Source of the DNA: Acetofilamentum sp.
GTDB taxonomy: Bacteria > Bacteroidota > Bacteroidia > Bacteroidales > JAADGE01
Direction: 5' to 3'
DNA: 45,213 bases
Assembly (NCBI GenBank): GCA_020720665.1
Contig: DYOF01000008.1
Coordinates: forward strand, 1 to 45,213
Numbering within the stretch: the first letter of the stretch is position 1; each line of letters begins with the position of its first letter. Made by a program: the position numbers and the translations under genes. Positions 9,334 through 36,013 of this stretch are shown here, piece after piece. Below the pieces are notes generated by a model. The model saw nothing but the letters and a program-made list of their open reading frames with translations. It searched no databases and was not told where the DNA came from.

Positions 9334-10464
9334 TTAACGCAATTTATCAATTATAGTTGAAATTTCTTTAAAGATATCGTCAATATTTCCGACACCGTTA
9401 ATTTCATGTAATTTCCCCTGGTCTGCGTAATATTCTGCAACTTTTGCAGTTGTTAATTTATACGTTTGAATTCTTTTTTCAATAATATCCGGTGTGTCGT
9501 CAATTCTTCCGCCTATTTTTGCTCTTTCCGATAATCGTCTGACTAATTCATCTTTGTCAACATCTAAGGCAAACATGGCTGATATTTCGTAATTTTTATT
9601 TGCCAATAATTTGTGTAATCCTTTGGCTTGTTCAACGGTTCGCGGGAAACCGTCTAATACAACTCCTGATGTACCTTTATTTGCTTCAATTTCTTTGACA
9701 ACCATACCTAAGATAATGTCATCGGGGACTAATCCGCCTTTATTCATGTGGTTTTTAGCAATTTGGCCAAGTTTTGAGTTTATTTCAAGTTCTTTACGAA
9801 GAATGTCACCGGTTGATAAGTGAACCAAATTGTATTTTTCTATTATTTTTTTTGATTGAGTTCCTTTACCGGATCCGGGAGGTCCGAATAATAAGAAATA
9901 TTTTACTTTTGAAATAGTTTTGTTTTTAATTGCTTCGGCATTCGTGTAAATTGCAGTTAAATTTCTGCCTAAACCGTCATAATCTAAACCATATCCGACG
10001 ATAAAATCATCCGGAATTTCCATTCCGATATAGTCAATAGTGTAGTTTCTCATGAAAGCATCCGGTTTTACAAGCAAACTGGCGATACGAATTTCTTTTG
10101 GTCCGAGTTCTTGAATTTGATCGACAATTTTCTCCATTGTTATTCCGGAGTCAATAATGTCTTCAAGAATAACAACCGTTTTCCCTGTTAAGTCTTCGTT
10201 TAAGCCGATTAATTTTTTTACGTTTCCGGTTGATTTTGTACCTTCGTATGAAGCAAATTTAATAAATGAAATATGTGCATCAAATTCTATTCGTTTGAAT
10301 AAATCGGAGGCAAACATAAAGGCTCCGTTTAAAATTGCTACAAAAATAACGTCTTTACCTAAAAGTTGAGCATTCATTTCATCAGCCATGTCTTGAACGG
10401 CATCCTGAATACGTTTGGTAGGTATCGTTAATTCAAATTCTTTATCGTGAAGCTTAATTCTCAT
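9334..10464 (-). CDS. adk: Hypoxanthine phosphoribosyltransferase - adenylate kinase fusion
   Basis: N-terminal PRTase signature VVILEDIIDSGITM with VGYGLDYDGLGRNL; C-terminal YFLLFGPPGSGKGTQSKKI P-loop, LSTGDILR, VVLDGFPRT, GGRIDDTPD. Confidence 0.96.
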   Translation of the reverse strand: MRIKLHDKEFELTIPTKRIQDAVQDMADEMNAQLLGKDVIFVAILNGAFMFASDLFKRIEFDAHISFIKFASYEGTKSTGNVKKLIGLNEDLTGKTVVILEDIIDSGITMEKIVDQIQELGPKEIRIASLLVKPDAFMRNYTIDYIGMEIPDDFIVGYGLDYDGLGRNLTAIYTNAEAIKNKTISKVKYFLLFGPPGSGKGTQSKKIIEKYNLVHLSTGDILRKELEINSKLGQIAKNHMNKGGLVPDDIILGMVVKEIEANKGTSGVVLDGFPRTVEQAKGLHKLLANKNYEISAMFALDVDKDELVRRLSERAKIGGRIDDTPDIIEKRIQTYKLTTAKVAEYYADQGKLHEINGVGNIDDIFKEISTIIDKLR

Positions 10465-18156: not shown

Positions 18157-19401
18157 TTGAATAATTTAAGAAAAAAAATTTATAAAATATCTAAAAAATC
18201 CGGAGATAAAATGGGCTTTGATTTGCCTTATTTTATTGAAAACGGGTTTTGGGTTTTGTTGTCGCAAGCTGTTAATACAGGAGCTGCATTTATTATGTCG
18301 ATATTTTTTGCTCGATACTTATCAAAAGAAACATTCGGCGAATATCAATTGATTGTTTCAATCATCGGAATTTTAGCAATATTTTCATATACCGGTTTAA
18401 ATACTTCAATTTTGAGATCAGTTGCTCGAGGTTATGAGAAAAGTTATAAAACTGCTGTAAATTTCAGCTTTAAAAAATCACTTTTAGCTATTCCGATTTT
18501 TTTAATTTTGTCAGTTTGGTATTATTTTCATGAAAAAACAGATGTTGCCTGTGTATTGATTTTTGCGGGATTAGCTTTTGCTTTTATTCAAGCTCATAAC
18601 AAATGGTTTGCTTTTTGGAAAGGGAAAGAAAAATTTGAAAAAACGGCAAAACAACAAATTATTCAAAGCGTAATTTTAAATTCAAGTTTAATTCTTGCCG
18701 CAGTATTTTTTTCAGAGTATTTGATAGTTACAGCAGGAACTTATTTAGTTGTAAATGCCGGCTTTAATACCTTGTGGCATTTTAAAGCAAAACATGCAAT
18801 TGTAGGTAACAAAATTGATGAGGATTGCATCCCTTACGGAAAATACATGACCAAAATGGGAATTTTATCAAGTTTAATTTTATATTTTGATAAGATAATT
18901 ATCGGATTTATTGATTTAGAACTTTTAGCTGTTTACGGCATTGCCCTAAAACTTTTTGATGTTGTTAAGCAAATCATCAGAAGTTTTTACTCTGTAAGTA
19001 CTCCAAAATTTGCCAAGAAAAAAGTAACAATAAAAAAACAAGAACTATTTATCATGATTATCGGCGGAATTTTGTTATCCGGATTAATTTATGCTGTTTC
19101 CGAACCGATTATAATTTATTTCTTTACCGAAGAATACACAGAAGCCGTTAATATATTTAAAAAGTTGTTGTTTGTTTTACCTTTTGTATTTGTAAGTCCT
19201 TTATTTGCTATTAAAGCTAATGCAGAAAAAGATAAATCAAAAATAGTGAAAAAAAATATTTTAGTGCCGGCTGTTGCAATAGTCGGTTCAATCCTGATAT
19301 TTTTATTAACAAATAACATGGAGTATTTCGTTTTATCAAAGGTATTTATTATGCAAATTGCTTTTTTTATTGTTTTAGTTCCGTTGAAATCAAAAATTTA
19401 G
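18157..19401 (+). CDS. Oligosaccharide flippase / polysaccharide biosynthesis protein (Wzx-like, MATE/MOP)
   Basis: DLPYFIENGFWVLLSQAVNTGAAFIMSIFFARYLSKETFGEYQLI; many TM helices. Start is TTG 18157 or ATG 18211. Confidence 0.9.
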   Translation: MNNLRKKIYKISKKSGDKMGFDLPYFIENGFWVLLSQAVNTGAAFIMSIFFARYLSKETFGEYQLIVSIIGILAIFSYTGLNTSILRSVARGYEKSYKTAVNFSFKKSLLAIPIFLILSVWYYFHEKTDVACVLIFAGLAFAFIQAHNKWFAFWKGKEKFEKTAKQQIIQSVILNSSLILAAVFFSEYLIVTAGTYLVVNAGFNTLWHFKAKHAIVGNKIDEDCIPYGKYMTKMGILSSLILYFDKIIIGFIDLELLAVYGIALKLFDVVKQIIRSFYSVSTPKFAKKKVTIKKQELFIMIIGGILLSGLIYAVSEPIIIYFFTEEYTEAVNIFKKLLFVLPFVFVSPLFAIKANAEKDKSKIVKKNILVPAVAIVGSILIFLLTNNMEYFVLSKVFIMQIAFFIVLVPLKSKI

Positions 19402-20156
19402 GCTTGACCTACAGCAAACATATATACCGGCAAATCTTTTGAACTTACAAATTTCATAAACGGATTCAGATTTAAAATTGTTAATACATTGAACAGATAT
19501 CTGTTTAAGTTCACGGCAGGATATTTGATTTGTTTTTTATATTTTAAATAGCTGAACATTTTATGACTTTCCCTTAATTCAATGAATCTAAAGTATGTTG
19601 AAAAAAGTTCAATAAATTCGTGTTGAAAAAATTCTTTAACATGCATGGTGTCAAATGGTTTTTCGGATATTCTGACAGGAGTGCCGATAATAATTAAGGC
19701 ATCTTTTTTAGAAATTCGTTTTATTTCTGCCGTCATTTTTTCCGGATATTGTACATGTTCAATGACATCGGAAGAAATTATCAAATCGAAAGTATTTTCC
19801 TGAAAATTGATATGATAAACTTCAGAAACTGAAAATTGTGCTTCAGGAATTTTAAGCTTTGCTGTTTTTATGGCTTCTTCAGACAAATCAATTCCGAACA
19901 TATTAAAATTAATGTTTTTTATTTGTTTTTTAAGTAAATATAGTAAAACACCGTCGCCGCAGCCGACATCAAGAATGTTAAGGCTTGTTTCACTCGAAAA
20001 ACCTAATTTTGAGATATATTCTTCAATTAATTGTATCTGTTTTAAATAGCGTGCTAAAACAAATGCGTTTAATTTTCTTAAATTAAACTTATTAATTTGT
20101 TTATAGTGATAATCGGAACTTCTGGTTTTGTATTTAGTAAATTGAATTTCATTCAT
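19398..20156 (-). CDS. Class I SAM-dependent methyltransferase
   Basis: LNILDVGCGDGVLLYLL motif I; FDLIISSDVIEHVQYPEKMTAEIKRI. Confidence 0.92.
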   Translation of the reverse strand: MNEIQFTKYKTRSSDYHYKQINKFNLRKLNAFVLARYLKQIQLIEEYISKLGFSSETSLNILDVGCGDGVLLYLLKKQIKNINFNMFGIDLSEEAIKTAKLKIPEAQFSVSEVYHINFQENTFDLIISSDVIEHVQYPEKMTAEIKRISKKDALIIIGTPVRISEKPFDTMHVKEFFQHEFIELFSTYFRFIELRESHKMFSYLKYKKQIKYPAVNLNRYLFNVLTILNLNPFMKFVSSKDLPVYMFAVGQA

Positions 20157-20161
20157 AATTT

Positions 20162-20908
20162 TTACAATTTAATACCTATTCTTCCTGTTAAATCAATTCT
20201 GTTCAGTAAAATTGGTATTTTGTTTTCGGTAAAATATTCGTCAACTGCTTTTCTGCAACCCAACCAATAACCGTAATCGTCAATTATTAAAACTCCTTTC
20301 GGAGAAAGTGAAGGGTAGAGGTATGTTAATTCGTGAAATGTTGATTCGTACCAGTCGGTATCTAATCGTAAAAGTGCAATATTTTCAGGTATAATTTCAG
20401 GAATGGTGTCTTCAACCTTTCCTTTTACAAAAAAAATGTTTTCTTTTGGGTATCCGGTTGAATATATATTTTTTTTAACTTCTTCTATTTCAGAACGACA
20501 CCAATCGGAACCGCCTTCCTTATTGATGCTTTGTTTGAATTTTTGAACGGCACTTCGATTTGTATATTTAATATCCTTTTCTGTCGGTTCGGTCATTCCT
20601 TCATAGGTATCATAAAGATATATTTTTTTATCGGTGCAATTGTTTTTAATCAAACTTAACGCAATCATCATAGAACTTCCGCCCTTCCAAACTCCGCATT
20701 CAACGTAATCTCCGGGAATTTGGTTTTTAAGGGTATATTCAATGCTTTTATAAACCGAATAGAGCCTTTCAACGGATGTCATCGTAAAAGGGAAACATTT
20801 TTCTGCTAAATCAAGAAAATCTTTTTCCATATCGGAAAAGGGATTTTCTTTCTTAATTTTTATAATTTTATAACCGATTTTATTTAAAATTCCTGAAAAT
20901 ATGCCCAT
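20162..20908 (-). CDS. TylF/MycF (macrocin O-methyltransferase)-family methyltransferase
   Basis: GDYVECGVWKGGSSMMIAL, IYLYDTYEGMTEPT, LLRLDTDWYESTFHELTYLYPSLSPKGVLIIDDYG. Confidence 0.92.
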   Translation of the reverse strand: MGIFSGILNKIGYKIIKIKKENPFSDMEKDFLDLAEKCFPFTMTSVERLYSVYKSIEYTLKNQIPGDYVECGVWKGGSSMMIALSLIKNNCTDKKIYLYDTYEGMTEPTEKDIKYTNRSAVQKFKQSINKEGGSDWCRSEIEEVKKNIYSTGYPKENIFFVKGKVEDTIPEIIPENIALLRLDTDWYESTFHELTYLYPSLSPKGVLIIDDYGYWLGCRKAVDEYFTENKIPILLNRIDLTGRIGIKL

Positions 20909-20910
20909 TT

Positions 20911-21632
20911 TTATTTTTTTGCGATAATAAAATATCCGCCGTGGTAATTCCCCAATTTTTGGTGATTTTTTATGAATTTTGAATTATCTAATTTATTTAT
21001 CAAGTTAAATATTGGGAACATAAAATATGCTATATGTCTGATAATTATCGGTAATGACTGAATCAATGTTTTTTCATGGCATTTCTGACGGTAAAAAATC
21101 GTCCCGTAATTTCGATGGTTTCAATTTTAAAACCGATGTTATTTAATTCCTTTTCCCATTTTGAATAAGTCCATCGCTGAAAATCAAAGGGATCGGCATG
21201 AATAGGGTATAAAAAAGGAACCGACATAATAAATGTACCGTTTGGTTTTAAAACTCTGAAACATTCTTTCAGTCCGCAGCTGATTTTTTCGACATGTTCA
21301 AAAAGTTCAACAGCATTAACAACATCAATACTTTCCGGTTTGATAGTTTTCATGTCGGCAACATCAGTTATGATGTCAGGCTTATATGAGGGTTCAATGT
21401 CTGCAAAAATCCATTTTTCTACACTTTCCTTAGGTTTTACAAAAGCACCTCTGTCACGTCCGCCGATATCTAATACAACTCCCTTATATTCAGAGATATA
21501 TTTTTTTTGCAGATAATCAATCTGTTTTCTTCTGTCGCTGCTTCGGAAATAATATTTTAATTGTTTGAAGGTCATTTTATAAATTTTCTGTAACAATGAT
21601 ATAAAATGTAAATAGATTTTGCAAAAAAACAC
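20911..21632 (-). pseudogene. Class I SAM methyltransferase interrupted by one -1 frameshift at an A6 run (pseudogene, recoded gene or sequencing error)
   Basis: ORF 21063-21632 (DIGGRDRGAFVKPKE...VNAVELFEHVEKISCGLKECFRVLKPNGTFIMSVPFLYP...RNAMKKH*) ends after AAA AAA CAT TGA. The -1 frame continues ACA TTG ATT CAG as TLIQSLPIIIRHIAYFMFPIFNLINKLDNSKFIKNHQKLGNYHGGYFIIAKK* to TAA at 20911. ATG 21575 is the likelier start. Confidence 0.85.
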
Positions 21633-21666
21633 TATGCGTATTTTTATTTTTTATTGTTTGCCGAGC

Positions 21667-22665
21667 TTATTTATTTAGTTTTTTTACAAGTTTATATTTT
21701 AAAATTTCTGTTCGTAACGCTATAAGATTTTTAAAATTTAAATGCTTCGGATGTTTTATATTTTGGAAAATAGTTTTAATGAAATTAATATATTCGGCAG
21801 CAACTTCATTCATTGAAGGCAATTGAATTTCATTTTGACAGGAGTTATAGTTATCTTTTATATGATGTAGTTTTTTTATAATTTCAGAATGCTCATTGTA
21901 AATACATCCGGCTTTTCCGATAATTTCAGGATGTCCGCCGTCATTATAAGCTAATGCGGGTAAACCGCAATGCAGTGCCTCAATGAGCGAATTTGAGCAC
22001 GGATCATTTTTTGATGCTGTAATAAAAATATCGTGTTGTTTTAAAAGTTCTGCAAGTTGATTTCCGGGCAAAGCTTCAATGTGTTTGATATTTCTGAATT
22101 TAACAGGACTGTTTCCGCAAAATGTCATTTCAAATTCAGAAAAATTCAGTGCGGTATCAAGATATTTATACGTATCAAAACCTTTGCTCATATTTGATGC
22201 CCAGCTGGTTGCAATTATTTTTGTTTTTCGATTCGGATTAAACGGTTCTTTTTTTGAATGATTAAATAGCAGAGGATCGGGTGCATTTGTAATTATTGTT
22301 TCGGGAACATTAATTTTGAGGCCGAGTTCGATATTTTTATTTTTTGACCATTGAGATTGAAAAATAATTCCGTCTGCAATTAAATTGTTTGTTTTATATA
22401 TGAGCTTGTCTAATTTTAAAGTATCCTTCCGGATTAAAAAAACAGGTCCGTCAATGCGGTGGATAAATACTTTTTCGGGATGATTGGCTTTAAGCCTAAT
22501 TAAATCATTAAGTCGGTGATGACTGTTAAATAAAATAACATCAGCTTTTTCAGGATTTTGTTCATAAATGTTTTTAATTATTAAATCATTTTTTAGTGCT
22601 TTTAAAAATTGGTTCCCGCCGCCATAGGGTCCGGATTTTATTTCCAAAAAAATATTAATTTTCAT
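21667..22665 (-). CDS. Glycosyltransferase (GT4/GT-B-like)
   Basis: GGGNQFLKALKNDL; HDIFITASKNDPCSNSLIEALHCGLPALAYNDGGHPEIIGKAG. Confidence 0.88.
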   Translation of the reverse strand: MKINIFLEIKSGPYGGGNQFLKALKNDLIIKNIYEQNPEKADVILFNSHHRLNDLIRLKANHPEKVFIHRIDGPVFLIRKDTLKLDKLIYKTNNLIADGIIFQSQWSKNKNIELGLKINVPETIITNAPDPLLFNHSKKEPFNPNRKTKIIATSWASNMSKGFDTYKYLDTALNFSEFEMTFCGNSPVKFRNIKHIEALPGNQLAELLKQHDIFITASKNDPCSNSLIEALHCGLPALAYNDGGHPEIIGKAGCIYNEHSEIIKKLHHIKDNYNSCQNEIQLPSMNEVAAEYINFIKTIFQNIKHPKHLNFKNLIALRTEILKYKLVKKLNK

Positions 22666-22702
22666 TTGTTTTTTAAATTATTTTCAAAGTTCAGACAGAA
22701 TC

Positions 22703-22750
22703 GCATCATAAAATAATTATTCTTGTGTGTAAATAATTATTTTATAATGC
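22703..22750. repeat. AT-rich inverted repeat between glycan-locus genes
   Basis: GCATCATAAAATAATTATT (22703-22721), 10-nt loop, AATAATTATTTTATAATGC (22732-22750); 18 of 19 pairs match. Confidence 0.8.
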
Positions 22751-22760
22751 TTGTAATATG

Positions 22761-23690
22761 TTATAACTTTTTTAAAATTACAAAAAATGTTGCTCCGTAT
22801 CCGCTATATTTTCGGGAAAGGAATTTGTTAATTTTTTTAAACAATAAATTTTTCTGACTTATTTTACCGATAAAATTATATGTTTCAAGATGTTCGATTT
22901 CAAAATTCGGCAGATATTTATCTTTAAGTTCAGAAATATCAATTCCCTTTGTTTTGTCTATTTTTTTTCCTGCTGAGGGAGAATGAAAATCTGTCATTTT
23001 ATTGATTTCATCAGTACTTAAAATATTTTCGATAGCTTTTTCTTTAATTAGCTGTATATTAATTTGTTCTGTAATACTGTTTAATTTGTTTTTCTGTTTA
23101 ACTATTCGGTTAATTTTTGTTATACGTGCTAAGGTAATTAAGAATTTTTTAAACGATGTAAATGATTGAAGAAACAAGAATAACTTTAATAAAAAAGAAT
23201 GATTATAAAATGCTTTATTCGGTTCATGTCCGATAATTATTCGTCCGCCGGGTTTTGTGATTCGGTTTAAGTCCAGAAAAAATTGCGTTAAATCGGGAAC
23301 ATGATGAACAACAGAATTTATTGTGATGATGTCGGCATTTTTTGTAAGTATTGAATTTCCTGAAAGTTTAACAAAATCAAATTGACATTTAAAACCGGTT
23401 TTTAAATTTTTTTCGGCAACTTTTAACATTTCTTGTGACAGGTCAGAACATATAATAAAATCATTTTCCGTGCAAAACTCAGCAATGTTAATCGGAACAA
23501 AGCCGGTTCCGGTTCCGATATCCAAAATTGTAATCGGAGAGTTGTATTCGGATTTGATTTTTTGAAAATTATGTTTCCAACGCTGCGTTTCACCTTTAAA
23601 AATATCCTGATGTTTGTTTTGATAGGATTTTCCTTCTAAATCATGGAAAATTTCATTAACTTTTATGGCTAATTCTTTGTTATTGAGCAT
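22761..23690 (-). CDS. Class I SAM-dependent methyltransferase
   Basis: ITILDIGTGTGFVPINIAEF motif I; DIITINSVVHHVPDLTQFFLDLNRITKPGGRIIIGHEP. Confidence 0.9.
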   Translation of the reverse strand: MLNNKELAIKVNEIFHDLEGKSYQNKHQDIFKGETQRWKHNFQKIKSEYNSPITILDIGTGTGFVPINIAEFCTENDFIICSDLSQEMLKVAEKNLKTGFKCQFDFVKLSGNSILTKNADIITINSVVHHVPDLTQFFLDLNRITKPGGRIIIGHEPNKAFYNHSFLLKLFLFLQSFTSFKKFLITLARITKINRIVKQKNKLNSITEQINIQLIKEKAIENILSTDEINKMTDFHSPSAGKKIDKTKGIDISELKDKYLPNFEIEHLETYNFIGKISQKNLLFKKINKFLSRKYSGYGATFFVILKKL

Positions 23691-24720
23691 TTGAAACAGT
23701 TTCGATTATGTTTTTAAGTCGTTGTTTATAGGCTTTGAAATTATTTATATTAATAATTTTCTCATAATTTTTTTCGGCAAATTGTTCTTTTAAACCGGGA
23801 TGTTCATTAAAATCATTTATTTTTTCGATGAAACATTGAGTATTTGAACAAATTGATTCAGGAATCAGCAAATCAGAAGCCATACCGACCGGTGTGCTCA
23901 AAATCGGTATTTTGCATAAGGATGCCTCCGTTACGGCTTTCGGGCCGCCTTCGGAAACAGAAGTTATTACATACAAATCAATTAAATTATAAAGCAGATT
24001 AATATGTGATTCTGATAAATTGTTTTCATTAATATCGTCTTGTAAATTTGTAACAAAATTTTCATTTCCGATAAATAAATAGGGTATTTGATTTAATTTG
24101 CATTGATTTATCAGATAATGTCTTCTGGGACCGGCTAATAAAAGAATAATTTTTGAACGGTCAGTTTCTTTCAGAATATCAACAATCATATCCGGGTTTT
24201 TATGCCATTTGGCTTTAGTTAAATCGTCGCCGCGACTGTCGCGTTGGAAAGAGCCGATAATAAATTTATTTTGTATGAGTGTAAAATCAAGATTTATTTC
24301 GTTGCATATTTCCTTTTTTGATTTCTTAAGATTTTTGAAAATGTTTTCATCAACATAAAAAGGATTTATGAATATTTTTTCAGGACTGATTTTATGATTC
24401 AGAAGAAATTGTTTTTGTTTGTTATTTGCACATATCCAAAAATCGGTGAATGAAAAGTATTTTGTAATGTTTTTTTTATTTTCTTCGGGGTCGTTTGTGA
24501 TAATATTAATAATTTTTCGATTGTTTTTAAATTTTCTCAGAAAGTAAAATTTTCGTTTTAAAATGTACGAATACCAAACATTCAGTATAATATCGGCATT
24601 TAAAAAGCAAGAAACAATTTTGTATCCTTGTTCGCTCAGAGCCTTTTTATTATAGAAATGATCCTTGTCAACTGACCAGCCCTGTTTGTCTTTTCCTATA
24701 ATTTTAATTTTAACCGTCAT
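23680..24720 (-). CDS. Glycosyltransferase (GT-B)
   Basis: IIGSFQRDSRGDDLTKAKWHKNPDMIVDI; LYVITSVSEGGPKAVTEASLCKIPILSTPVGMASDLL. ATG at 24720; the track begins at a TTG. Confidence 0.85.
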   Translation of the reverse strand: MTVKIKIIGKDKQGWSVDKDHFYNKKALSEQGYKIVSCFLNADIILNVWYSYILKRKFYFLRKFKNNRKIINIITNDPEENKKNITKYFSFTDFWICANNKQKQFLLNHKISPEKIFINPFYVDENIFKNLKKSKKEICNEINLDFTLIQNKFIIGSFQRDSRGDDLTKAKWHKNPDMIVDILKETDRSKIILLLAGPRRHYLINQCKLNQIPYLFIGNENFVTNLQDDINENNLSESHINLLYNLIDLYVITSVSEGGPKAVTEASLCKIPILSTPVGMASDLLIPESICSNTQCFIEKINDFNEHPGLKEQFAEKNYEKIININNFKAYKQRLKNIIETVSNAQ

Positions 24721-25549
24721 TTTTTTCTGCAATTACAAAAGTTCTGTTGTTGCTGATTTTAATAATTCGTTTTGAATAATTATTTTTAAAGCAAATTTCA
24801 TCAACGGCTTTAACAACACCGGGGAATTGGTTTTCTGAATAATCATCAAAGAAAATGATGTCGTTTTTTTGTTGCTTGTTAATCAGGTAATTAAACTCTG
24901 TCAATACGTGCGAGTAATCATGTACGGCATCTAAAAATGCAAAATGAATTCGAGGTATATGGGTTCTTTTTAATTCGGTTTTAGTGTTTCCTTGATGAAA
25001 AACTATATGGTTGTCAATAAGGTATTTGTATTCTTTGAGAAGCTCTTCTCTGGTTTTTTTACCTTCCGTATCATCTATTGTGTTCCAATACATTTTATGT
25101 GTATGCGGTAATACGTCAAAAGTAAATATTTTACCCTGTATATTTGAATCAGCAAGAGCTTTAGCCATAACAATTGCAGAAAATCCTTTAGCTGTTCCGG
25201 TTTCAAAAACATTAATATTCACAATTTCGTTTTTTGAAATATACATCCTTAAGAACGAATACAGCAATCTTCCGTGTTGATAACAGATGTCTGATTTTTT
25301 AATGCCGACTTGAGTGTGTAAAGCTAAGTTGTCAAGAAATTGATTATCAATCCTGAAATGATTTTCTGTTTCTATTTGGTCAACAAGAGGAAATTGAATT
25401 AATTTAGCCTTAGCAGCCAATTTTAAATAGTCCTCTTTTGTCCCCTTAGGTTTTTTTGTCAACGGCGATGAATACCAATTCCTTTCCGCATATTTATTAA
25501 CAAGGTTTACTATAAAATTATCAAATTTTTGAATGATTCTCGGATACAT
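24710..25549 (-). CDS. Class I SAM-dependent methyltransferase (Methyltransf_24/TylF-like)
   Basis: NVFETGTAKGFSAIVMAKAL, GKIFTFDVLPHTHKMYW, FAFLDAVHDYSHVLTEFNYL, IIFFDDYSENQFPGVVKAVDE. ATG at 25549; the track begins at a TTG. Confidence 0.8.
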   Translation of the reverse strand: MYPRIIQKFDNFIVNLVNKYAERNWYSSPLTKKPKGTKEDYLKLAAKAKLIQFPLVDQIETENHFRIDNQFLDNLALHTQVGIKKSDICYQHGRLLYSFLRMYISKNEIVNINVFETGTAKGFSAIVMAKALADSNIQGKIFTFDVLPHTHKMYWNTIDDTEGKKTREELLKEYKYLIDNHIVFHQGNTKTELKRTHIPRIHFAFLDAVHDYSHVLTEFNYLINKQQKNDIIFFDDYSENQFPGVVKAVDEICFKNNYSKRIIKISNNRTFVIAEKNDG

Positions 25550-25554
25550 ATTTT

Positions 25555-26415
25555 TTATTTTTTCCAAATACTGAGGTCTTTATTTAAGAATTTTTCTAAT
25601 TCTTCAATTTCAGACAAATATTTACGGTTTAAGTTATTTTTAGTCAGATAATTCATTTGCGGATACGGACGACTTAAATACCGATTATGAAATTGATAGA
25701 ACGGGTAAAGAAGTTTATGATTACGCGTTAGTTTATTATTTAATAATTTATTTGTGATTTTAAAATTAGCTATTTTAGTTTGATTATATGCTTTTTCGGT
25801 TTTAAGTGATTCAATAAACGGCAGTTGCAAAAATTTGAATATTTTATTGAGTTCGTCAAGCGGATTTGTTTTTAATTCTTCGAGTATAACGCAATACATT
25901 TGATTTTTTTTGAAATAGTTCAAAAAGGAATGCAGCATTTTCATATATAAGCCGGTATTGAAATAGGAAAAATTAATTAAATGAAAATAATCAAGAGCTA
26001 TTCTATCGGATTCTTTTTCTATTGCTTGTTCAAAACTGCTTGATTCTCTGTTTTTTGAAAAGGCATGCCAATAGTGCGAATAGGCTCTGTTTATCGGATT
26101 TCTCAAAATGAATATTAATTTTGCGTCAGGAACATATTCAAACATTCTTTCAGGAACATAGTCATAAATATAGCTTGAAGTTGATTGACCGATTAAACCG
26201 TTTAATTTCTTGGTTTTAAAATGTTTGCTGAATTCACTGATGCCTTTTTTGTAATTTACAGGGTTGTCAAAAAAATGAATTTCAGTATCCGGCGGGCTGA
26301 ATGTAATTTGCCGGTGTTGTGATAAATATTTTAACAAAGATGTTGTGCCGCATTTTTGAACACCGCATATAATAAAATCAGGTTTAATTGAATTTTTTTC
26401 AAGTGTTTTGGTCAT
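25555..26415 (-). CDS. Sulfotransferase
   Basis: PDFIICGVQKCGTTSLLKYLSQH (5'-PSB loop) and KLIFILRNPINRAYSHYWHAF (3'-PB) PAPS-binding motifs. ATG at 26415. Confidence 0.94.
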   Translation of the reverse strand: MTKTLEKNSIKPDFIICGVQKCGTTSLLKYLSQHRQITFSPPDTEIHFFDNPVNYKKGISEFSKHFKTKKLNGLIGQSTSSYIYDYVPERMFEYVPDAKLIFILRNPINRAYSHYWHAFSKNRESSSFEQAIEKESDRIALDYFHLINFSYFNTGLYMKMLHSFLNYFKKNQMYCVILEELKTNPLDELNKIFKFLQLPFIESLKTEKAYNQTKIANFKITNKLLNNKLTRNHKLLYPFYQFHNRYLSRPYPQMNYLTKNNLNRKYLSEIEELEKFLNKDLSIWKK

Positions 26416-26417
26416 TT

Positions 26418-27083
26418 TCAGCTTAGCTTTTCTAATAAACAAATAAAGTGTTTTTGCGACAAATTAGAGTTAAAAATATTAAACATACGATTAGAAAACT
26501 TTTTAAGAGAAGGTTTAAGATAGTTTTGTTCGCTTTCAATAACTTTAATTTCGTAGTTATTTTTTTGAGCGTGAAATTCTATAAAATCTTTGGCTTCATC
26601 AAACGAAAAAAACCAGCGATGCCGGTCATGCGGTTTGTAAAACGGCAAACCGTAAAATTTACTGTATTTTCCGTATTGTAGGCGAAGTTCTTTTTTAACA
26701 GAATAAGGTTTTTTTCTCAAAAAATGAAATATACTGATATGTGCATTTGGTAAGGTAATAATTATATTTTTTGATGCAATTCGACAAATTTCATTAAAAA
26801 CGGTATGAAAATTATCCAGATGTTCCAAAACATCGGCACATACAATTGTTTCAAATTGTTTATCCGTAAACGGGAGTTTTTCGGTTTTATCTAAATCAAT
26901 TACGACATCGGGTTTTCCTGAAATATCAATACCGGTATATATTATTTCGTTTTTAATGTGTTTTTTTAAATCGGCATTATAACATCCGATATCTAAAACG
27001 GTTTGAGAGGACAAAAAAATGTACTCAAATCGTTCGGCTAACCATTTGCTTCGTTCTTCTCTGTTTGTATAAAACCAATTCAT
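26418..27083 (-). CDS. Class I SAM-dependent methyltransferase
   Basis: QTVLDIGCYNADLKKHI, FETIVCADVLEHLDNFHTVFNEICRIASKNIIITLPN; ends in TGA. Confidence 0.9.
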   Translation of the reverse strand: MNWFYTNREERSKWLAERFEYIFLSSQTVLDIGCYNADLKKHIKNEIIYTGIDISGKPDVVIDLDKTEKLPFTDKQFETIVCADVLEHLDNFHTVFNEICRIASKNIIITLPNAHISIFHFLRKKPYSVKKELRLQYGKYSKFYGLPFYKPHDRHRWFFSFDEAKDFIEFHAQKNNYEIKVIESEQNYLKPSLKKFSNRMFNIFNSNLSQKHFICLLEKLS

Positions 27084-28207
27084 TTGTTTTGTGTATTTAT
27101 TATTTGCAGAATTTTTTCGGCAAATAGGTGCATGTTATGATGTTCTTTTGCAAAAATCAGGCTGTTTTCAGAAAATTTTAATAAAATTTCAAGATTTGTT
27201 ATCATTGTTTCAATTTTTTCTTCTAAATCGGTTTCGTCTTTTGCCTTGAATATATATCCGTTTCGGGCATCTTCAACATAACATTTTGTTCCGTTTTCAG
27301 AGCTGCAAATTACCGGTAAACCGAATGCGCTTGCTTCAACAATCGAATAAGCAGCCGGTTCGGCATAACTCGGTAATATATACAAATGGTGGTTCGGATA
27401 TTGTTTCAAAATTTCTGCATATTCTATGTTTTCATAAAAATGAATATTATGTTCTGCGTTTAAATTTCTAACGGTTTCTGTCAATTTTCGATAATAATTC
27501 TTATCACTTGTTTCTCCGAAAAAGTTTAGTTCAATATTGTGTCCCTTTTTTATTAAATTGTAAACGGCATTAACAAGTGCTGATTGAGCCTTACGTTTAG
27601 TGTATTTACCTACGGAAATAATTTTTATTTTATTTCTCGGAATTTGGAAAGAATGTTTTTGTTCAGGAAAAACAAAGGGTAAATAATAAACATTTTTGAT
27701 ACCGAAATTTTTAAAAGCCTCAAAGTTTGATTTAATTGGTGTGATATAAGCAAACAGCTTCAAAAATTTGAAAAGTTTTATGTTTAAACGAAAAAGTGTT
27801 TCAGAGCCTTTAATATGCGTATATTTGCTTTGTGTCAGCATTAAAACTTTTGTGTGAAATTTTTTAGCCAGATACAAAGATTTCAATGCGCTTATATTTT
27901 GAAATGCTTTTAAAATGACAACATCAGGTTTATATTGTTTAAAAATTTGTTTTAATTCTTTTCCGGGAGAAAGCACACGGCGTTCAAAGCTTGATTTTAA
28001 ATTAGATTTCTTAAAACCTGAAAACGTTTTAATAAGCAAACGAGATATTATTGAAGCGTTAATTATTTTTATATCAATGTGTTCATGAAATTCTGATTGT
28101 CCTTTATACAGAGCAATAACTTTTACGGTATGACCCGCATTTTGCAGGGATAATGCTCTGTAATAGAGGTTTGTATGAAAACGTTGCGTAATAATTAAAA
28201 ACTTCAT
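27080..28207 (-). CDS. Glycosyltransferase family 4-like
   Basis: KIISVGKYTKRKAQSALVNAVYNL; LYILPSYAEPAAYSIVEASAFGLPVICSSENGTKCYVEDARNGYIF. Confidence 0.92.
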   Translation of the reverse strand: MKFLIITQRFHTNLYYRALSLQNAGHTVKVIALYKGQSEFHEHIDIKIINASIISRLLIKTFSGFKKSNLKSSFERRVLSPGKELKQIFKQYKPDVVILKAFQNISALKSLYLAKKFHTKVLMLTQSKYTHIKGSETLFRLNIKLFKFLKLFAYITPIKSNFEAFKNFGIKNVYYLPFVFPEQKHSFQIPRNKIKIISVGKYTKRKAQSALVNAVYNLIKKGHNIELNFFGETSDKNYYRKLTETVRNLNAEHNIHFYENIEYAEILKQYPNHHLYILPSYAEPAAYSIVEASAFGLPVICSSENGTKCYVEDARNGYIFKAKDETDLEEKIETMITNLEILLKFSENSLIFAKEHHNMHLFAEKILQIINTQNK

Positions 28208-29319
28208 GTTAAGTGCTTAATGATTTCTTCTAAATTTTTAATATTTTTTTTAATGTTATGATTTTCTGATAAATAGTTAAAGGCATTTTCTCCTTTTATT
28301 CTTAAATCATCTTTATTTAATACTAATGCTTTAGTTTCTTGAATAAGTTTTTCAAAATTATTTTCACAAAATATACCGCAATTGTATGCACTAATAAAAT
28401 TATCCGGATTGACATTTAAAGAAATAATCGGTGTTTTTGTTGATGCCGCTTGTAAAAATGTATTCGGAAATCCTTCATAGTCGGATGTGTTAATAAAAAC
28501 AAGGGCTTCATTAAAATAGCTAAGGATTTCATTAAATTGAACACATTCGATAAAGCTTAAGTTTTTAAGTTTTTCAGCTTCCGATTTAAGCTTATACCAT
28601 TGTTTAAAATCCTTTTTATGATAAGGACAAATCATTACAAATTGTATTTCGGGCAAACAGTGAGCTAATTTTATAAATAATTCGGGTTGCTTAAAATCCA
28701 CAGTTCTTCCGACCCAAAGGACATGTTTTTTTTCAATAATTTTTGGATTATTAAACGAAAAAACATTTTTAAATTCAACACCCTTAATTGAATGGCATTG
28801 TGCCAACATTTTTTTTTGATATTGATTTTGAGAAAGAACAACATCGGCATGTTCCAGACCGTATTTAAAAATTTTTCCTGAAATTCCGGAACGTTTTATT
28901 CTGCTCATATCCGTATCAACATCATTAGCCGAACGATGAATCAATTTTTTTTTGAATATTTTTTTATAAAATGCCGTAATACCGACTATCGGGTTAAATG
29001 TTGTTGTAATAATCACGTCAGGTTTAAGCTTAATTAAAATCAAAAAGTAGTGTAGAGATTTAATTAATTTTGCAATCATACCGTCGTCAGAATTCATAGT
29101 AATACTCCTCACCAATATTATGTTTTCGTATGTTTCAGTTCTTTTTTGCTTTTGTTTTTCGGTTAAAAAATAAATTTCAAATTCCGGATTTTTTGCAATT
29201 TCGGATGAAAGTAAAAACATTTGAAATTCTGCTCCTCCAAAATTTGTTTGCGGAATATTTTTGAAATACGGATAAGAAGCCGGTGAAAAAAAACAGACTT
29301 TTATTTTTTGATTGCCCAT
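28204..29319 (-). CDS. Glycosyltransferase family 4-like
   Basis: FGGAEFQMFLLSSEIA; VLWVGRTVDFKQPELFIKLA; VFINTSDYEGFPNTFLQAASTKTPIISLNVNPD. Confidence 0.92.
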   Translation of the reverse strand: MGNQKIKVCFFSPASYPYFKNIPQTNFGGAEFQMFLLSSEIAKNPEFEIYFLTEKQKQKRTETYENIILVRSITMNSDDGMIAKLIKSLHYFLILIKLKPDVIITTTFNPIVGITAFYKKIFKKKLIHRSANDVDTDMSRIKRSGISGKIFKYGLEHADVVLSQNQYQKKMLAQCHSIKGVEFKNVFSFNNPKIIEKKHVLWVGRTVDFKQPELFIKLAHCLPEIQFVMICPYHKKDFKQWYKLKSEAEKLKNLSFIECVQFNEILSYFNEALVFINTSDYEGFPNTFLQAASTKTPIISLNVNPDNFISAYNCGIFCENNFEKLIQETKALVLNKDDLRIKGENAFNYLSENHNIKKNIKNLEEIIKHLT

Positions 29320-30233
29320 GCTTCGATACTTTTACCCGGAATAATAAATCCGATACTGCGATACAACAAAGCTAAAACTTTATGAAGAAATTTGATGTTT
29401 TGTGTCGCATTTTTAAATTTTCCGATGTTTTTTTTCCCTTTTGAAATCTGATTTTCTTGAATGTTTTTTGGGGTGTTTTTCTTTCTGAAAATAGATAGTA
29501 TTTTGCTTTTAATAAACCAAATATCAATTCCGTATGAAGATATATTCAGAGTTGTTAAATTATGATTATCAAATAATTTGCGGATTGTTTTTTTTTCAAA
29601 ATAGTTTACATGCCCGGGTGGTTTGTTAACGTGATAATTATTAAACCATCTTCTGGACAAGAGATTGAAATCAGGAACTCCCGAAATAATCATTAACCCG
29701 TTCGGTTTCAGCAGTTGTTTCAATTTTTCGGTAACTGCATTAACTTCATAAATATGTTCATATGTGGCATGTGAAAAAACAACATCAAAACTATTTTCGG
29801 AATATTCGGTTTCAAAAATGTTTTTGGTTTCAATGTTTAAATTAAATTCTTTTCCGGCTAACTCAGAATAAGGCGAAAAATCAGACCCGTATGCTTCAAT
29901 TCCTTTTCTTTTTGCTCTTAATAAAAATTGCCCTGAGCCGCAGCCGAATTCTAAAAGTTTAAGTTTTGGAGTTTTAAAATGACGAATAATTTTATTGAGT
30001 ATTTGATCGTAATATGCAGCCGTAATTAAATGTTCTTTTTGGAGATAACGATAAAATGTATCGAGGTCGTAAATATTTTTTTCGAGTACATTTTGTTTGG
30101 GAATATCTGCAAAAACCATAGAACAGTTTTCACATCTTAATAAATCTGTGTTGTTCAAATTAATAATGAAACGACCCTTTTGATTGTCGCAAAAAGGACA
30201 CTTTCTGAATGATATGTTTTTAACTTGCTTCAT
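29301..30233 (-). CDS. SAM-dependent methyltransferase with N-terminal zinc ribbon
   Basis: CPFC...CENC pair at N-terminus; LKLLEFGCGSGQFLLRAKRKGIEAYGSDFSP; VVFSHATYEHIYE. Confidence 0.9.
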   Translation of the reverse strand: MKQVKNISFRKCPFCDNQKGRFIINLNNTDLLRCENCSMVFADIPKQNVLEKNIYDLDTFYRYLQKEHLITAAYYDQILNKIIRHFKTPKLKLLEFGCGSGQFLLRAKRKGIEAYGSDFSPYSELAGKEFNLNIETKNIFETEYSENSFDVVFSHATYEHIYEVNAVTEKLKQLLKPNGLMIISGVPDFNLLSRRWFNNYHVNKPPGHVNYFEKKTIRKLFDNHNLTTLNISSYGIDIWFIKSKILSIFRKKNTPKNIQENQISKGKKNIGKFKNATQNIKFLHKVLALLYRSIGFIIPGKSIEAWAIKK

Positions 30234-30241
30234 TCAAATGC

Positions 30242-32596
30242 TTAATTGTGTTTTTTTTTCCAATGATAAAGAGCCGTAAAAGCGGTATTATCCGTTTTAA
30301 TTTTTTTAGTGTTTTCATTCAGTTGATTTTCAATAACTGCTTGAACTTCTTCTTTATTTAAAGCAAAATCAAATATTCTTACATTATCAATAAACCCTTT
30401 AAAAATTGGATTTATTTGAAATTTTACTAAACTTGAATCTGTGGTTGTTAATTCTTTTTCAACAAGCTCGCCGTTTATAATAACCCCTTGATAAAAATTC
30501 TTGTTTTCATATTCTTGAAACCATACGATATTACTTTTCTTTTTATCATGCAGAAAAGCGCTTACCGTATCTATATTTTCTTTAATAAAATAAATACTGT
30601 CGTTTACTAATTGACATTCAAGAAATTCGTTATTTTCATCGGCAATCATAAAAACTCTGTCGTTTATTAAATTGTCGGGAAGCAAATCAAAAGAAACAGA
30701 ATATGAGTTAGAAGCTTTTAAGTTGGCTGCCGGTATATATTGGTTTGCAAAAAAATCATTTAATGAAGCTTTCATCGTTTCATCAAAATAAAAAACTTCA
30801 ACACCGGTATTGTCAATACCTGTTCCGTTATATTTTTTAAAATATAAATTAACAAATGCTATGAAATGTTTGTCGATTCTATTTTCGTTATGTGTGTGCC
30901 ATGTTATCCATCCCGATTTATATTGTGATAAATCTTCATATAAATCAGCAAAATTTCTGCCCTTATAACTGCCTAAGCTGATAAATTTTGTTTCCGGTGA
31001 AATGCCTTGCATATATAATTTCGGACCCCAATGTTTGAAAACAACATCGCCATTTTTGTAATTCTCTGAAATTGATTTATATGCAATTGAAGGTTTTGCC
31101 GGAGATAAGGTATTTGTTTCATATAAAGTTCCAAATCCGTTATAATATTTTAAACTGATTACTATTATTAATAACCCGATAATCAGAAATTGAATTGTTT
31201 TTGAGAATAAAACCTTAACTAATATTGTAAAAATTCCAAAAATAAGTAATATCACGATGGGGGTTACAAATGAAATATATCGGAAATGAGGAGCATATTT
31301 AAAAACAAATGAAAAAAGAATCCATGTAATTATTGCCGTTAAAAAGAGTGCTAAATATGTTTTTCGGAATAAATTGTGTTTAATAATAAAATAAATTGAA
31401 AGACCTAAAATAAGTATAATGATATTTGTATAGACAGAAAAAGGAAAATCGAATAGAGCTTTTGTATAGACTTCCGAATTATTAACTTCAAAAAATGTGA
31501 AACGTTTAAATCCTACTTTAAACGGAAAAATGATTTGAAATAACAGAATCAAAATAAAAGTAATTGAAGCCGTTAAATATTTTTTTTCTTTATAAAAGAG
31601 AAAAACGGAGAAAACGGAAAAAATTAAAAAAACAGGAAATAAAAGTGTTGTATTTTGGTGTGTGAAAAGGTTTGAATAAATTAAGATTAATAAAAAAGGA
31701 AGAACGATATAATTAAAATTAAGATAGTTTTTAAAAAACGGTTTGTTATCAGAATTAAATAATTTGTATGTGTTTTGTTTCGTAAAAAATGAATAAGTCC
31801 AATAAAAGGACAAGAAAAATGTCGGAAAAATCATAGCATACATTCGTGCCCACCGACCGAGTATTAAAAACGGAACATACAATGCTACAGAAAGAGCGGT
31901 TAAAATTATTGTGTGTTTATCCTTAACAAACGGATAGCCGAAAATTATAATAAAAATAATCAGTATTACGGAAAAAAGAGCAGACGGAAATCGAGCAGCC
32001 CATGTATTGATGCCGAATAACTTAAATGAAAGAGCCGTTATAAATTGATGAGGCTTTGCCCGGTTATATGGTGTTTTATCTACAGTTTGTTTAATAAAAT
32101 CCCATTGTTTAAATTCTCCGGTCATAGTGTAGCCGGCAGCACCTCTGACAACACTGATTTCATCCGAATACAAGTCGTATTTATCTAATTTGTAAAATGT
32201 TGTAAAAGTTGATAATCCGATTACTATAAATATTAAAACAGCGAATAATATGTTTTGTTTGTTAAAAAAATTGTCAGTTTTAAAAATTTTATTTTGGTTT
32301 TTGAAATTAAGTTCGATGTGTTTTTGAAAACGGGTTTGATTATAAATAATTGAAATAATTCCGGTTAAAACAGCTAAAATACTTATCGGTAAACGAAAAT
32401 TTGATAAGGGATGTGCCGGCGAATTATATTTTGTAAGGCTGAAAATATCAATAATTATACTTAGTAATAAAAAGAATAGAAAAATGTATGTGCTGAAACC
32501 GGCAAATTTTGAAACACCCTTTTTCTTTTGAGATAAAGTACTTTCGGGCTTATTACTTACTTTAATGTTTTTTTCGCGTGTTCGTTTCATTTTCAA
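30242..32596 (-). CDS. GT-C (ArnT/PMT-like) glycosyltransferase with C-terminal LamG/concanavalin-like domain
   Basis: LYSDEISVVRGAAGY Asp-Glu loop, PHQFITALSFKLFGINTWAARFPSALFSV, many TM helices; C-terminal GFIDNVRIFDFALNKEEVQAVIE is LamG-like. Confidence 0.82.
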   Translation of the reverse strand: MKMKRTREKNIKVSNKPESTLSQKKKGVSKFAGFSTYIFLFFLLLSIIIDIFSLTKYNSPAHPLSNFRLPISILAVLTGIISIIYNQTRFQKHIELNFKNQNKIFKTDNFFNKQNILFAVLIFIVIGLSTFTTFYKLDKYDLYSDEISVVRGAAGYTMTGEFKQWDFIKQTVDKTPYNRAKPHQFITALSFKLFGINTWAARFPSALFSVILIIFIIIFGYPFVKDKHTIILTALSVALYVPFLILGRWARMYAMIFPTFFLSFYWTYSFFTKQNTYKLFNSDNKPFFKNYLNFNYIVLPFLLILIYSNLFTHQNTTLLFPVFLIFSVFSVFLFYKEKKYLTASITFILILLFQIIFPFKVGFKRFTFFEVNNSEVYTKALFDFPFSVYTNIIILILGLSIYFIIKHNLFRKTYLALFLTAIITWILFSFVFKYAPHFRYISFVTPIVILLIFGIFTILVKVLFSKTIQFLIIGLLIIVISLKYYNGFGTLYETNTLSPAKPSIAYKSISENYKNGDVVFKHWGPKLYMQGISPETKFISLGSYKGRNFADLYEDLSQYKSGWITWHTHNENRIDKHFIAFVNLYFKKYNGTGIDNTGVEVFYFDETMKASLNDFFANQYIPAANLKASNSYSVSFDLLPDNLINDRVFMIADENNEFLECQLVNDSIYFIKENIDTVSAFLHDKKKSNIVWFQEYENKNFYQGVIINGELVEKELTTTDSSLVKFQINPIFKGFIDNVRIFDFALNKEEVQAVIENQLNENTKKIKTDNTAFTALYHWKKKHN

Positions 32597-32696
32597 AAAG
32601 TGGGCAGGCTAAATTAAATGAAAACTAAAGAAAAAGCAAATCATTTTCTGTTATAATTTTAAGCCGATATTAAAAAGAGGTTTAGCACAGAATGAA

Positions 32697-33806
32697 CTAT
32701 GAAAAAAGTAATTTAAACTCTTTTAAAATAATGCCTTTTTGATGTTCTGTTTTTATATAATTAACTCCGTTTTTGCCAAATGTTTTACATAATTCATTAT
32801 TTGTAATGAGAGTTTCAAAATCGGATGTAAATTTTTCAAAACTTCCGTTTGCACAATAACCGAGTTTATAGGTGTCAATTATTTTATCAGGGTTAACTGA
32901 ATACGATAACACGGCACATTCAGCTTTCATAGCTTCGGCACTTGTATTTGAAAAACCTTCATAATCGGAAGTAAGTACAAAAACTTTTGCATTTTCATAA
33001 TAATCACTTATTAATTCGGGTTTTACATAGTTAATTAATTGCAAATTCTTTATCTTTTCAGCTTTCTCCTGAATTTCTCTTCCATAGTTTATTTTTTCCC
33101 TGACAATAGGAGCTATCATAACAAACGGATAGTCGGGATAGTTTTTTGCTAAAATTAAAAATCGTTCGGGGTTTTTAATTTCGGTTAATCGACCGACCCA
33201 CAATATTGTTTTTTTTTCTGAGCGATTGATTTCAGATTTATTAGAATCGGGATAAATATTTTTAATAATTCTGTCGGGTTTTCTTTTTCTGTGTTCTTCA
33301 AAAGCATTGAATTGTTGGCGAGTTTGTGCTGTAAGGATATCTGCTTTTTTGTATGTATAACTCATAAACGCCGCAGTAAGTTTTCCGTGATATTTTTGTT
33401 GTCGTTTTTTTGAAATTTCAGCATCAGCAGCAATCATATATATTATTTTTTTTCGCAAAACCCTTTTAATGTAGAATACAGCAACGGCAACACCGGCATC
33501 AGCAGAACGGAAAATATAAAAATCGGCATTGATGTTTTTTAAAGTTTTAAATAATTTTAACAGCCGTTTAAAAATGTTATCATTAAAACTGAATGATTTG
33601 CGGATTTTTACTTTTTGTATTTCTTCAAATTCGGGTTGATTAAAATCAGCTACACAAAAATGCACATCAAAATTTGAATCTTTTGCCGTTTCAGTACTTA
33701 AAAGATAGGATTGTAATTGAGCACCGCCTATTTTGTCTTCAGCCCCGTCGATATCAGGATTAAAAAGATAATATGCTCGCGGTATTACAAAGCAAATTTT
33801 TGTCAT
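32697..33806 (-). CDS. Glycosyltransferase family 4-like
   Basis: KIGGAQLQSYLLSTETA; ILWVGRLTEIKNPERFLILAKNY; VFVLTSDYEGFSNTSAEAMKAECAVLSYSVNPD. Confidence 0.92.
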   Translation of the reverse strand: MTKICFVIPRAYYLFNPDIDGAEDKIGGAQLQSYLLSTETAKDSNFDVHFCVADFNQPEFEEIQKVKIRKSFSFNDNIFKRLLKLFKTLKNINADFYIFRSADAGVAVAVFYIKRVLRKKIIYMIAADAEISKKRQQKYHGKLTAAFMSYTYKKADILTAQTRQQFNAFEEHRKRKPDRIIKNIYPDSNKSEINRSEKKTILWVGRLTEIKNPERFLILAKNYPDYPFVMIAPIVREKINYGREIQEKAEKIKNLQLINYVKPELISDYYENAKVFVLTSDYEGFSNTSAEAMKAECAVLSYSVNPDKIIDTYKLGYCANGSFEKFTSDFETLITNNELCKTFGKNGVNYIKTEHQKGIILKEFKLLFS

Positions 33807-34855
33807 ACGTTATAGTATTGTTTATACCATTCAACAAAATTTCGAACACCTGTTTCTAATTTTGTGTTCGGTTTATAATTAAAATCATGAATCAAATCAC
33901 TTACATCGGCAAAAGTGGACTGAATATCTCCGGCTTGCATCGGTAAATATTTTTTATCGGCTTTTTTCCCGGTTGCTTTTTCAATTGCGGATATAAAATC
34001 TTCTAATTTCACCGGCAGGTTATTGCCGATATTGTATAATTTGTAAGGAGCTGAAGAATTTGAAGGATCGGGTTTTTCAGAATTCCAATTATCATCGCCT
34101 TTCGGTATTTTTTCAATAACAAAGCTAATGCCTTCAACAATGTCATCTACATAGGTAAAATCTCTTAACATATTACCGTTATTATAAACTTTTATTTCTG
34201 AGCCTTCAAAAATGGCTTTTGTAAAAAGAAAAAGAGCCATGTCCGGTCGTCCCCATGGTCCGTAAACTGTAAAAAAACGCAATCCGGTTGTGGGAAGTTT
34301 AAAAACATGACTGTAGGAATGTGCAATCAATTCATTTGATTTTTTAGTTGCGGCATATAAACCGGCAGGGTGGTCGGTATGATGGGTTGTTTTAAAAGGC
34401 ATTTCGGTATTTAAACCGTAAACACTGGAACTCCCGGCGTAAATAAAATGTTTTACTCCGTTATTTTTGGAGGCTTCTATAACATTAAAAAAACCGTTTA
34501 TGTTGCTTCGAATATAAACTTCCGGATTTTCAATGCTGTATCGAACACCTGCTTGTGCCGCTAAATGACACACATAATCAAATTTTTGTTCTGAAAACAA
34601 GCGATTGATGTTTGCACTGTCTTCAATTTCAAGTCGGATAAAAGTATAATTTTTGTGAATTTTACTTTGAACAGGCTTTCCGTATTCAATGCTTATTTTA
34701 TAAACACCTGATTGTTCGAGTCTTGCAAATTTTAAACCGGAATCGTAATAGTCGTTTATATTATCAATTCCGATAACTTGAAAATTCAATTCGATTAACT
34801 TTTCAACGACATGAAATCCGATAAACCCGGCTGATCCCGTAACTAAAATCTTCAT
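33803..34855 (-). CDS. NAD-dependent epimerase (UDP-glucuronate 4-epimerase-like)
   Basis: MKILVTGSAGFIGFHVVEKL, IDNINDYYDSGLKFARLEQ, YAATKKSNELIAHSYSHVFKLPTTGLRFFTVYGPWGRPDMALFLFTKAI. Confidence 0.94.
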   Translation of the reverse strand: MKILVTGSAGFIGFHVVEKLIELNFQVIGIDNINDYYDSGLKFARLEQSGVYKISIEYGKPVQSKIHKNYTFIRLEIEDSANINRLFSEQKFDYVCHLAAQAGVRYSIENPEVYIRSNINGFFNVIEASKNNGVKHFIYAGSSSVYGLNTEMPFKTTHHTDHPAGLYAATKKSNELIAHSYSHVFKLPTTGLRFFTVYGPWGRPDMALFLFTKAIFEGSEIKVYNNGNMLRDFTYVDDIVEGISFVIEKIPKGDDNWNSEKPDPSNSSAPYKLYNIGNNLPVKLEDFISAIEKATGKKADKKYLPMQAGDIQSTFADVSDLIHDFNYKPNTKLETGVRNFVEWYKQYYNV

Positions 34856-34860
34856 TTTGT

Positions 34861-36003
34861 TCAGTTGTTTTTTTGATATGAAAAAAATAGATTTATATAC
34901 TCATCAGCAATAGTTTGCCAATTATATTTTTTAGATTTTTCCGCAGAATTTTTTCCTAATTCTTCTGTTAAATCCGGATAAAAGTAAAATTTTTTGATGA
35001 TTTCAACAAGTTCATCTGTGCATCCCGCCTGAAATACAAAACCGTTGTTGCTGTCAACCAATTCTTTAGTGCCGCCGACATTTGTTACAATAACAGGCAA
35101 TCCTGAAGCCATAGCCTCCAATAAAGCATTACTCATACCTTCATTATAGGACGGCAGAACAAAAATATCAGCATTTCTGTATGTTTCCGGCATTTGTTCT
35201 CGCGGAACATAACCGGAAAATTGAATTTTATCAGCGACATTAAGTTCTGATGCATATTTTTTATAAGCCTCTGTTTCATCACCTGTTCCCACTAAGTTTA
35301 CCTGAATTTTTATGCCTTGTTTTTGTAATTCGGAAACTGCTTCGATAAGAGTATATTGACCTTTTCGTTTAATCAGGCGAGCAGAGCAAATTAATTTTAA
35401 GGGCTGTTCAGTTTTATATGTTTTAGCGTAGAATTTATAATTATCAATTCCGTTATATATGATTTTTAATTTCAAATTAGGAGAAATTTTTTCAATCATT
35501 TGTTTCTCCGTTAAGCATTTTGTGATTATTAAATCCGCATGTCGCCATATTTTTTTGATAAAGGGCGATATAAATTTATATAAAAATGTGTAGCGTTCTT
35601 CAAATCCGGGAATATCCGGACCGCCGATTCTGACGATATAAGGTATTTTTCTGAACCGACTCAAAAATAAAGCAGGTAAACCGGAAGGAACTGTAGTCCA
35701 AACTAAAATTAAATCATATTTAACTGTTTTACTCAAAGCAAATCCCTTTTTCAGAGATTTAAACGCATATCGGATTAATTCGATATTCGTTGCATGATGA
35801 ATATTTTTTTTATTAACGGGTACTTCAAAAATTCGAATAGTTTTTGAAAATTGTTTTTGTCTGCTGTGTTTATCTGCAGATGAGCTGATTAAATCAATGA
35901 ATAAGTCAGGAACCGTTTCAAAAATTTTGAACAGTTCGAGATTTACCGTTCCGGTACCACCGCCCAACGGAGGAAATTCATTGTTAAACATCAGTATTTT
36001 CAT
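34861..36003 (-). CDS. Glycosyltransferase family 4
   Basis: NEFPPLGGGTGTVNLEL; LICSARLIKRKGQYTLIEA; ADIFVLPSYNEGMSNALLEAMASGLPVIVTNVGGTKELV. Confidence 0.95.
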   Translation of the reverse strand: MKILMFNNEFPPLGGGTGTVNLELFKIFETVPDLFIDLISSSADKHSRQKQFSKTIRIFEVPVNKKNIHHATNIELIRYAFKSLKKGFALSKTVKYDLILVWTTVPSGLPALFLSRFRKIPYIVRIGGPDIPGFEERYTFLYKFISPFIKKIWRHADLIITKCLTEKQMIEKISPNLKLKIIYNGIDNYKFYAKTYKTEQPLKLICSARLIKRKGQYTLIEAVSELQKQGIKIQVNLVGTGDETEAYKKYASELNVADKIQFSGYVPREQMPETYRNADIFVLPSYNEGMSNALLEAMASGLPVIVTNVGGTKELVDSNNGFVFQAGCTDELVEIIKKFYFYPDLTEELGKNSAEKSKKYNWQTIADEYINLFFSYQKNN

Positions 36004-36013
36004 TTTGTGTGTT

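What the first reader, a model, noticed from the sequence alone, without database searches (positions are those of the whole stretch)
20911..21632. Glycan-locus methyltransferase split by one base at an A6 run, restored by a -1 shift
The annotated 189-aa methyltransferase ends ATG AAA AAA CAT TGA. Read in the -1 frame after AAA AAA, the sequence continues for 52 codons with no stop and ends in GNYHGGYFIIAKK*, a plausible methyltransferase C-terminus. Three explanations fit: a homopolymer error in assembly, an ON/OFF mutation in the strain, or recoding by ribosomal -1 shift or transcriptional slippage. The run is short and the heptamer G AAA AAA C is not the strongest known slippery site, so error or mutation is the default. 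It lies in a surface-glycan operon, where phase variation would matter.
Basis: partly seen in the sequence, partly recalled or inferred. Interest (0 to 1): 0.66.

Follow-up and report, generated by a model that had tools for sequence, protein, structure and literature searches.

The report
Methyltransferase gene broken by one base
A methyltransferase gene in a surface-sugar gene cluster of a draft Bacteroidota genome has its reading frame broken by one base at a run of six A's; relatives carry it intact with no slippery site, so this is an ordinary recent mutation or assembly error, not a regulated frame switch.

Summary
On the minus strand the frame-0 ORF ends ...RNAMKKH* at an A6 run (21069-21074). 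The -1 frame then stays open for 52 codons to a stop at 20911-20913, 2 nt before the next gene. The tail is a real methyltransferase C-terminus: at least 14 orthologs from other species carry body and tail in one uninterrupted frame, and the window's tail is 56-75% identical to its closest relatives, with no sign of decay.

The break is unique to this sequence. No other gene among 121 comparable ones in 333 kb of the same draft genome is broken. Recoding lacks support. No ortholog has such an A run at the site, the site is only a weak A_AA.A tetramer rather than an X_XXZ_ZZN heptamer, and the downstream RNA is not structured (z = 0.3). The organism's intact genes hold hundreds of A6 and longer runs. 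Phase variation also lacks support, since the tract is short, common and not conserved.

The best reading is a one-base loss at DNA level, either a very recent strain mutation or a consensus error. Reads are needed to separate these. As written, the gene would make a 170-aa protein lacking the last strand of the fold, probably inactive. Ordinary.

The parts
21063..21575 (-). Frame-0 part of a class I SAM-dependent methyltransferase (170 aa from ATG 21575; the GTG at 21632 is an upstream extension), ending RNAMKKH*
   Evidence: ortholog starts; PF08241 Methyltransf_11, E 2e-08, above the gathering score
21069..21074 (-). A6 run (ATG AAA AAA CAT) where the frame is lost
20911..21069 (-). Displaced C-terminal tail of the same methyltransferase (52 codons in the -1 frame, ...GNYHGGYFIIAKK, stop 20911-20913; it begins by re-reading the last A of the run); by analogy with an ortholog model it carries helices and the final beta strand
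20162..20908 (-). Next gene in the operon, intact TylF-type macrocin O-methyltransferase family protein (PF05711, E 2e-44)
19398..20156 (-). Further class I methyltransferase of the same locus, intact
21667..22665 (-). Upstream neighbour, glycosyltransferase group 1, intact

Best explanation
A conserved, single-frame methyltransferase gene of a surface-glycan locus has lost one base at a short A run in this assembled sequence. The loss shifts the frame, and translation would stop after MKKH, removing the last 52 residues, which in orthologs hold a helical segment and the final strand of the methyltransferase fold. The change happened in DNA, either very recently in the strain by replication slippage or in the consensus sequence during assembly. 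Shown: the frame break, the homology of the tail, intact orthologs, absence of decay. Inferred: that the loss is at DNA level rather than bypassed by recoding, and that the truncated protein is inactive. I rate true recent mutation and consensus error as about equally likely.
For: At least 14 orthologs (L003, L004, L006, L008, L009, L010, L034, L035, L037-L042, L044) read through body and tail in one frame. The orthologs re-found in a search of 393 genomes of the order are also intact. The tail is 75% identical to each of the three closest orthologs against 71, 67 and 68% for the body, and only 1 of 19 otherwise invariant tail positions is changed in the window, so it has not decayed. Orthologs carry AAC AAA ACA, AAT AAA ACA, AAC AGA ACA and the like at the site, so the A run is not a conserved signal. 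No other break was found among 121 comparable genes, 124 kb of coding matches. AlphaFold of the ortholog L034 (pLDDT 86.5) puts helices 178-199 and 201-205 and strand 215-221 after the break point. Prior work treats frame breaks seen in one genome only and confirmed by homology as sequencing error or recent indel (PMC3711429).
Against: A tail free of decay would also be seen if the tail were still translated by recoding. Raw reads and same-species strains were not available, so mutation and assembly error cannot be separated, and low-level bypass cannot be excluded.
Confidence: 0.92

Rival explanations
1. Programmed -1 ribosomal frameshifting at A_AA.A joins the two parts into a 221-aa enzyme, with the 170-aa form as a second product.
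For: The A_AA.A tetramer lies exactly at the junction and is a weak but real -1 motif in E. coli (PMC4066793). The tail is undecayed.
Against: The A run is absent from nearly every ortholog, all of which are in one frame anyway. It is not an X_XXZ_ZZN heptamer in frame. Tetramers without a stimulator are barely above background, and A_AA.A was the least efficient of the six active tetramers even with a pseudoknot. The downstream RNA fold is no better than shuffles (z = +0.30), and no SD-like stretch is visible upstream (sequence). 96 canonical A_AAA_AA(G/C) sites sit inside intact genes of the sampled genome.
Confidence: 0.03
2. Transcriptional slippage at the A run yields a fraction of in-frame mRNA.
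For: The site is a homopolymer of A in an AT-rich genome.
Against: Selection against slippage typically becomes visible at about nine A/T (PMC1088944). This run is six. ORFs in 333 kb of this genome carry 548 A6 and 361 A7-A10 runs, which suggests that RNA polymerase copies such tracts faithfully.
Confidence: 0.02
3. Phase variation: the A tract is a contingency repeat switching a glycan methyltransferase ON and OFF, caught here in OFF.
For: It lies in a surface-glycan locus; the break is recent and at a homopolymer.
Against: The tract is short, extremely common in the genome and not conserved in orthologs. All other orthologs are intact. Longer A/T runs in neighbouring genes are in frame.
Confidence: 0.03
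4. The gene naturally ends at MKKH and the tail is a chance open frame.
For: About 11% of ORFs in the sample have an open -1 frame this long at their 3' end.
Against: The tail is 56-75% identical over 52 residues to the C-termini of the seven closest orthologs in one frame.
Confidence: 0.002

Closest known systems
Singleton frameshifted genes (indel mutation or sequencing error), as catalogued by GeneTack in prokaryotic genomes (PMC3711429)
   Same: The break is seen in one genome only, is confirmed by homology to intact relatives, and lies towards the 3' end of the gene
   Different: Nothing of note; raw reads were not available here
Class I SAM-dependent methyltransferases, Pfam PF08241 Methyltransf_11
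   Same: SAM-binding core with LDIGGRDRG; Rossmann-type predicted fold; Foldseek hits to BioC, RebM and similar
   Different: Substrate unknown; TM-scores of 0.5-0.6 only; the window copy lacks the C-terminal strand in frame
-1 frameshifting insertion-sequence and dnaX genes (A_AAA_AAG)
   Same: A-rich junction and -1 direction
   Different: No tandem slippery heptamer in frame, no stimulator, no conservation

Membership tests
Recent frame-disrupted gene (indel or sequencing error) | Intact single-frame orthologs in relatives | tested here: met
Recent frame-disrupted gene (indel or sequencing error) | Break private to one genome | tested here: met
   same-species strains not available
Recent frame-disrupted gene (indel or sequencing error) | Read support for or against the lost base | not testable with these tools
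   no raw reads
Programmed -1 ribosomal frameshifting | In-frame X_XXZ_ZZN heptamer or efficient Z_ZZN tetramer | tested here: not met
   ATG AAA AAA CAT offers only A_AA.A; weak by PMC4066793
Programmed -1 ribosomal frameshifting | Motif conserved in orthologs | tested here: not met
Programmed -1 ribosomal frameshifting | Downstream structure or upstream SD-like stimulator | tested here: not met
   (z +0.30; pseudoknots not modelled); sequence
Transcriptional slippage | Run of about 9 or more A/T, under-represented in coding sequence | tested here: not met
   A6; 548 A6 and 361 longer A runs in 211 ORFs; PMC1088944
Phase-variable contingency gene | Unusually long, conserved, hypermutable repeat | tested here: not met
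   read-level heterogeneity not testable
Methyltransf_11 (PF08241) | Score above the gathering threshold | tested here: met
   35.2 bits against 21.2
Methyltransf_11 (PF08241) | Methyltransferase activity | not testable with these tools
   none

The most novel reading that the evidence does not exclude
A lineage-specific A_AA.A (or RNA-polymerase slippage) bypass keeps the methyltransferase partly functional, setting the level of a glycan methylation without any conserved signal.
Probability: 0.04. Interest if true: 0.45.

Novelty: already known. Interest (0 to 1): 0.07.

Why it matters
Little beyond annotation. The gene should be recorded as a frame-disrupted methyltransferase rather than a 189-aa protein, and should not be cited as a recoding or phase-variation case. 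If it were true recoding, it would show frameshifting at a minimal site in a glycan locus.

Tried and rejected
Downstream RNA structure as a stimulator: not significant. Search for same-species or near-identical copies: none, the closest relatives are about 70% identical in DNA. A second copy in the same genome: none. A tail-only match in G007 (L052) looked like an independent tail gene but is an ortholog cut by a contig end. L009/L036 looked broken because the tblastn match ran into an upstream stretch with stops; the gene itself is intact. 'Stop inside' hits in the frame-break survey were judged to be short spurious (shadow) ORFs in the query genome, not breaks.

Full report
Observation. The minus strand of the window reads ...GTC AGA AAT GCC ATG AAA AAA CAT TGA ending at 21063, and the frame one base back stays open for 52 codons to a stop at 20911-20913; the next gene starts at 20908. 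The 189-aa length comes from a GTG at 21632. Orthologs start at or near the position of ATG 21575, so the broken product is more likely 170 aa and the intact family about 221 aa. An open -1 frame of that length is not rare by itself: 23 of 209 ORFs in sampled stretches of the same genome have one.

Homology. The frame-0 part matches Methyltransf_11 above its gathering score. The window lies in a 2.6-Mb, 237-contig draft genome, and the named relatives are mostly metagenome-assembled Bacteroidota. Searches of relatives and of GTDB genomes gave orthologs from at least 14 different assemblies. A query made of body plus tail aligns to all the close ones in a single uninterrupted frame, ending GNYHGGYFIIAKK or similar. 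The window sequence is the only one needing two frames. The tail is therefore the true C-terminus of this protein.

Age of the break. Tail identity to the three closest orthologs (75%) is as high as body identity (67-71%). At positions invariant in seven close orthologs, the window differs at 1 of 19 in the tail and 4 of 67 in the body, like the intact orthologs. So the tail has had no time to decay, or the break is not in the organism at all, or the tail is still translated.

Base rate. I compared 333 kb of this genome with 1.2 Mb of a congener (G001). 121 comparable genes gave one frame break, this one; the reverse comparison gave none in 109. The assembly is therefore not riddled with frame errors, but one event per 100 or so genes is unremarkable for either error or mutation. 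Prior large-scale work puts homology-confirmed singletons down to sequencing error or recent indels, with 3'-end cases leaning to real indels (PMC3711429).

Recoding and switching. Orthologs read AAC AAA ACA, AAT AAA ACA, AAC AGA ACA, CAA CGA ACC and so on at the site. The A run is not a conserved feature, and each ortholog is in one frame regardless; two (L008 and L038) happen to have AAA AAA followed by G in frame and still continue without a break. The only -1 motif in frame in the window is A_AA.A. Measured E. coli tetramers are barely above background without a stimulator, and A_AA.A ranks last of the active six with one (PMC4066793). The 94 nt downstream fold no better than shuffles (pseudoknots not modelled). 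For transcriptional slippage the usual length is near nine (PMC1088944). 211 ORFs of this genome hold 548 A6 runs, 361 longer A runs and 96 canonical A_AAA_AAG/C sites. The same numbers speak against the A6 being a contingency repeat.

Consequence. AlphaFold2 of the ortholog from L034 (pLDDT 86.5, pTM 0.84) shows a class I methyltransferase-like fold. The break falls at about residue 170, inside helix 161-174. Helices 178-199 and 201-205 and the last strand 215-221 come after it. Foldseek finds SAM-dependent methyltransferases such as BioC and RebM at TM 0.5-0.6. Losing the last strand of this fold probably inactivates the enzyme (inference). The neighbours (glycosyltransferases, TylF-type methyltransferase, sulfotransferase, flippase) support a surface-glycan locus. 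The gene is patchy: in a search of 393 genomes of the order, 4 had a match, the window's own genome included. Its loss would therefore probably be tolerated (inference).

Verdict. This is a private, recent one-base frame break in an accessory methyltransferase gene. Whether it is in the organism or only in the assembly needs reads. No evidence supports recoding or phase variation.

Noticed in passing
window 9334-10464 (-): One 376-aa ORF appears to fuse a hypoxanthine phosphoribosyltransferase-like N-terminus to an adenylate kinase-like C-terminus (FLLFGPPGSGKGTQSKKI...); read by eye only.
   Followed up: no
L037, L038-L041, L044: Close homologs (53-64% identity) of this methyltransferase lie on contigs binned as Nitrospirota, Patescibacteria/Paceibacterota and Lokiarchaeota, suggesting transfer between phyla or mis-binned contigs.
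   Followed up: no
window 18157-36961: A long glycan locus with methyltransferase, glycosyltransferase and sulfotransferase genes on the minus strand and a flippase on the plus strand at one end; several genes overlap by a few bases.
   Followed up: partly
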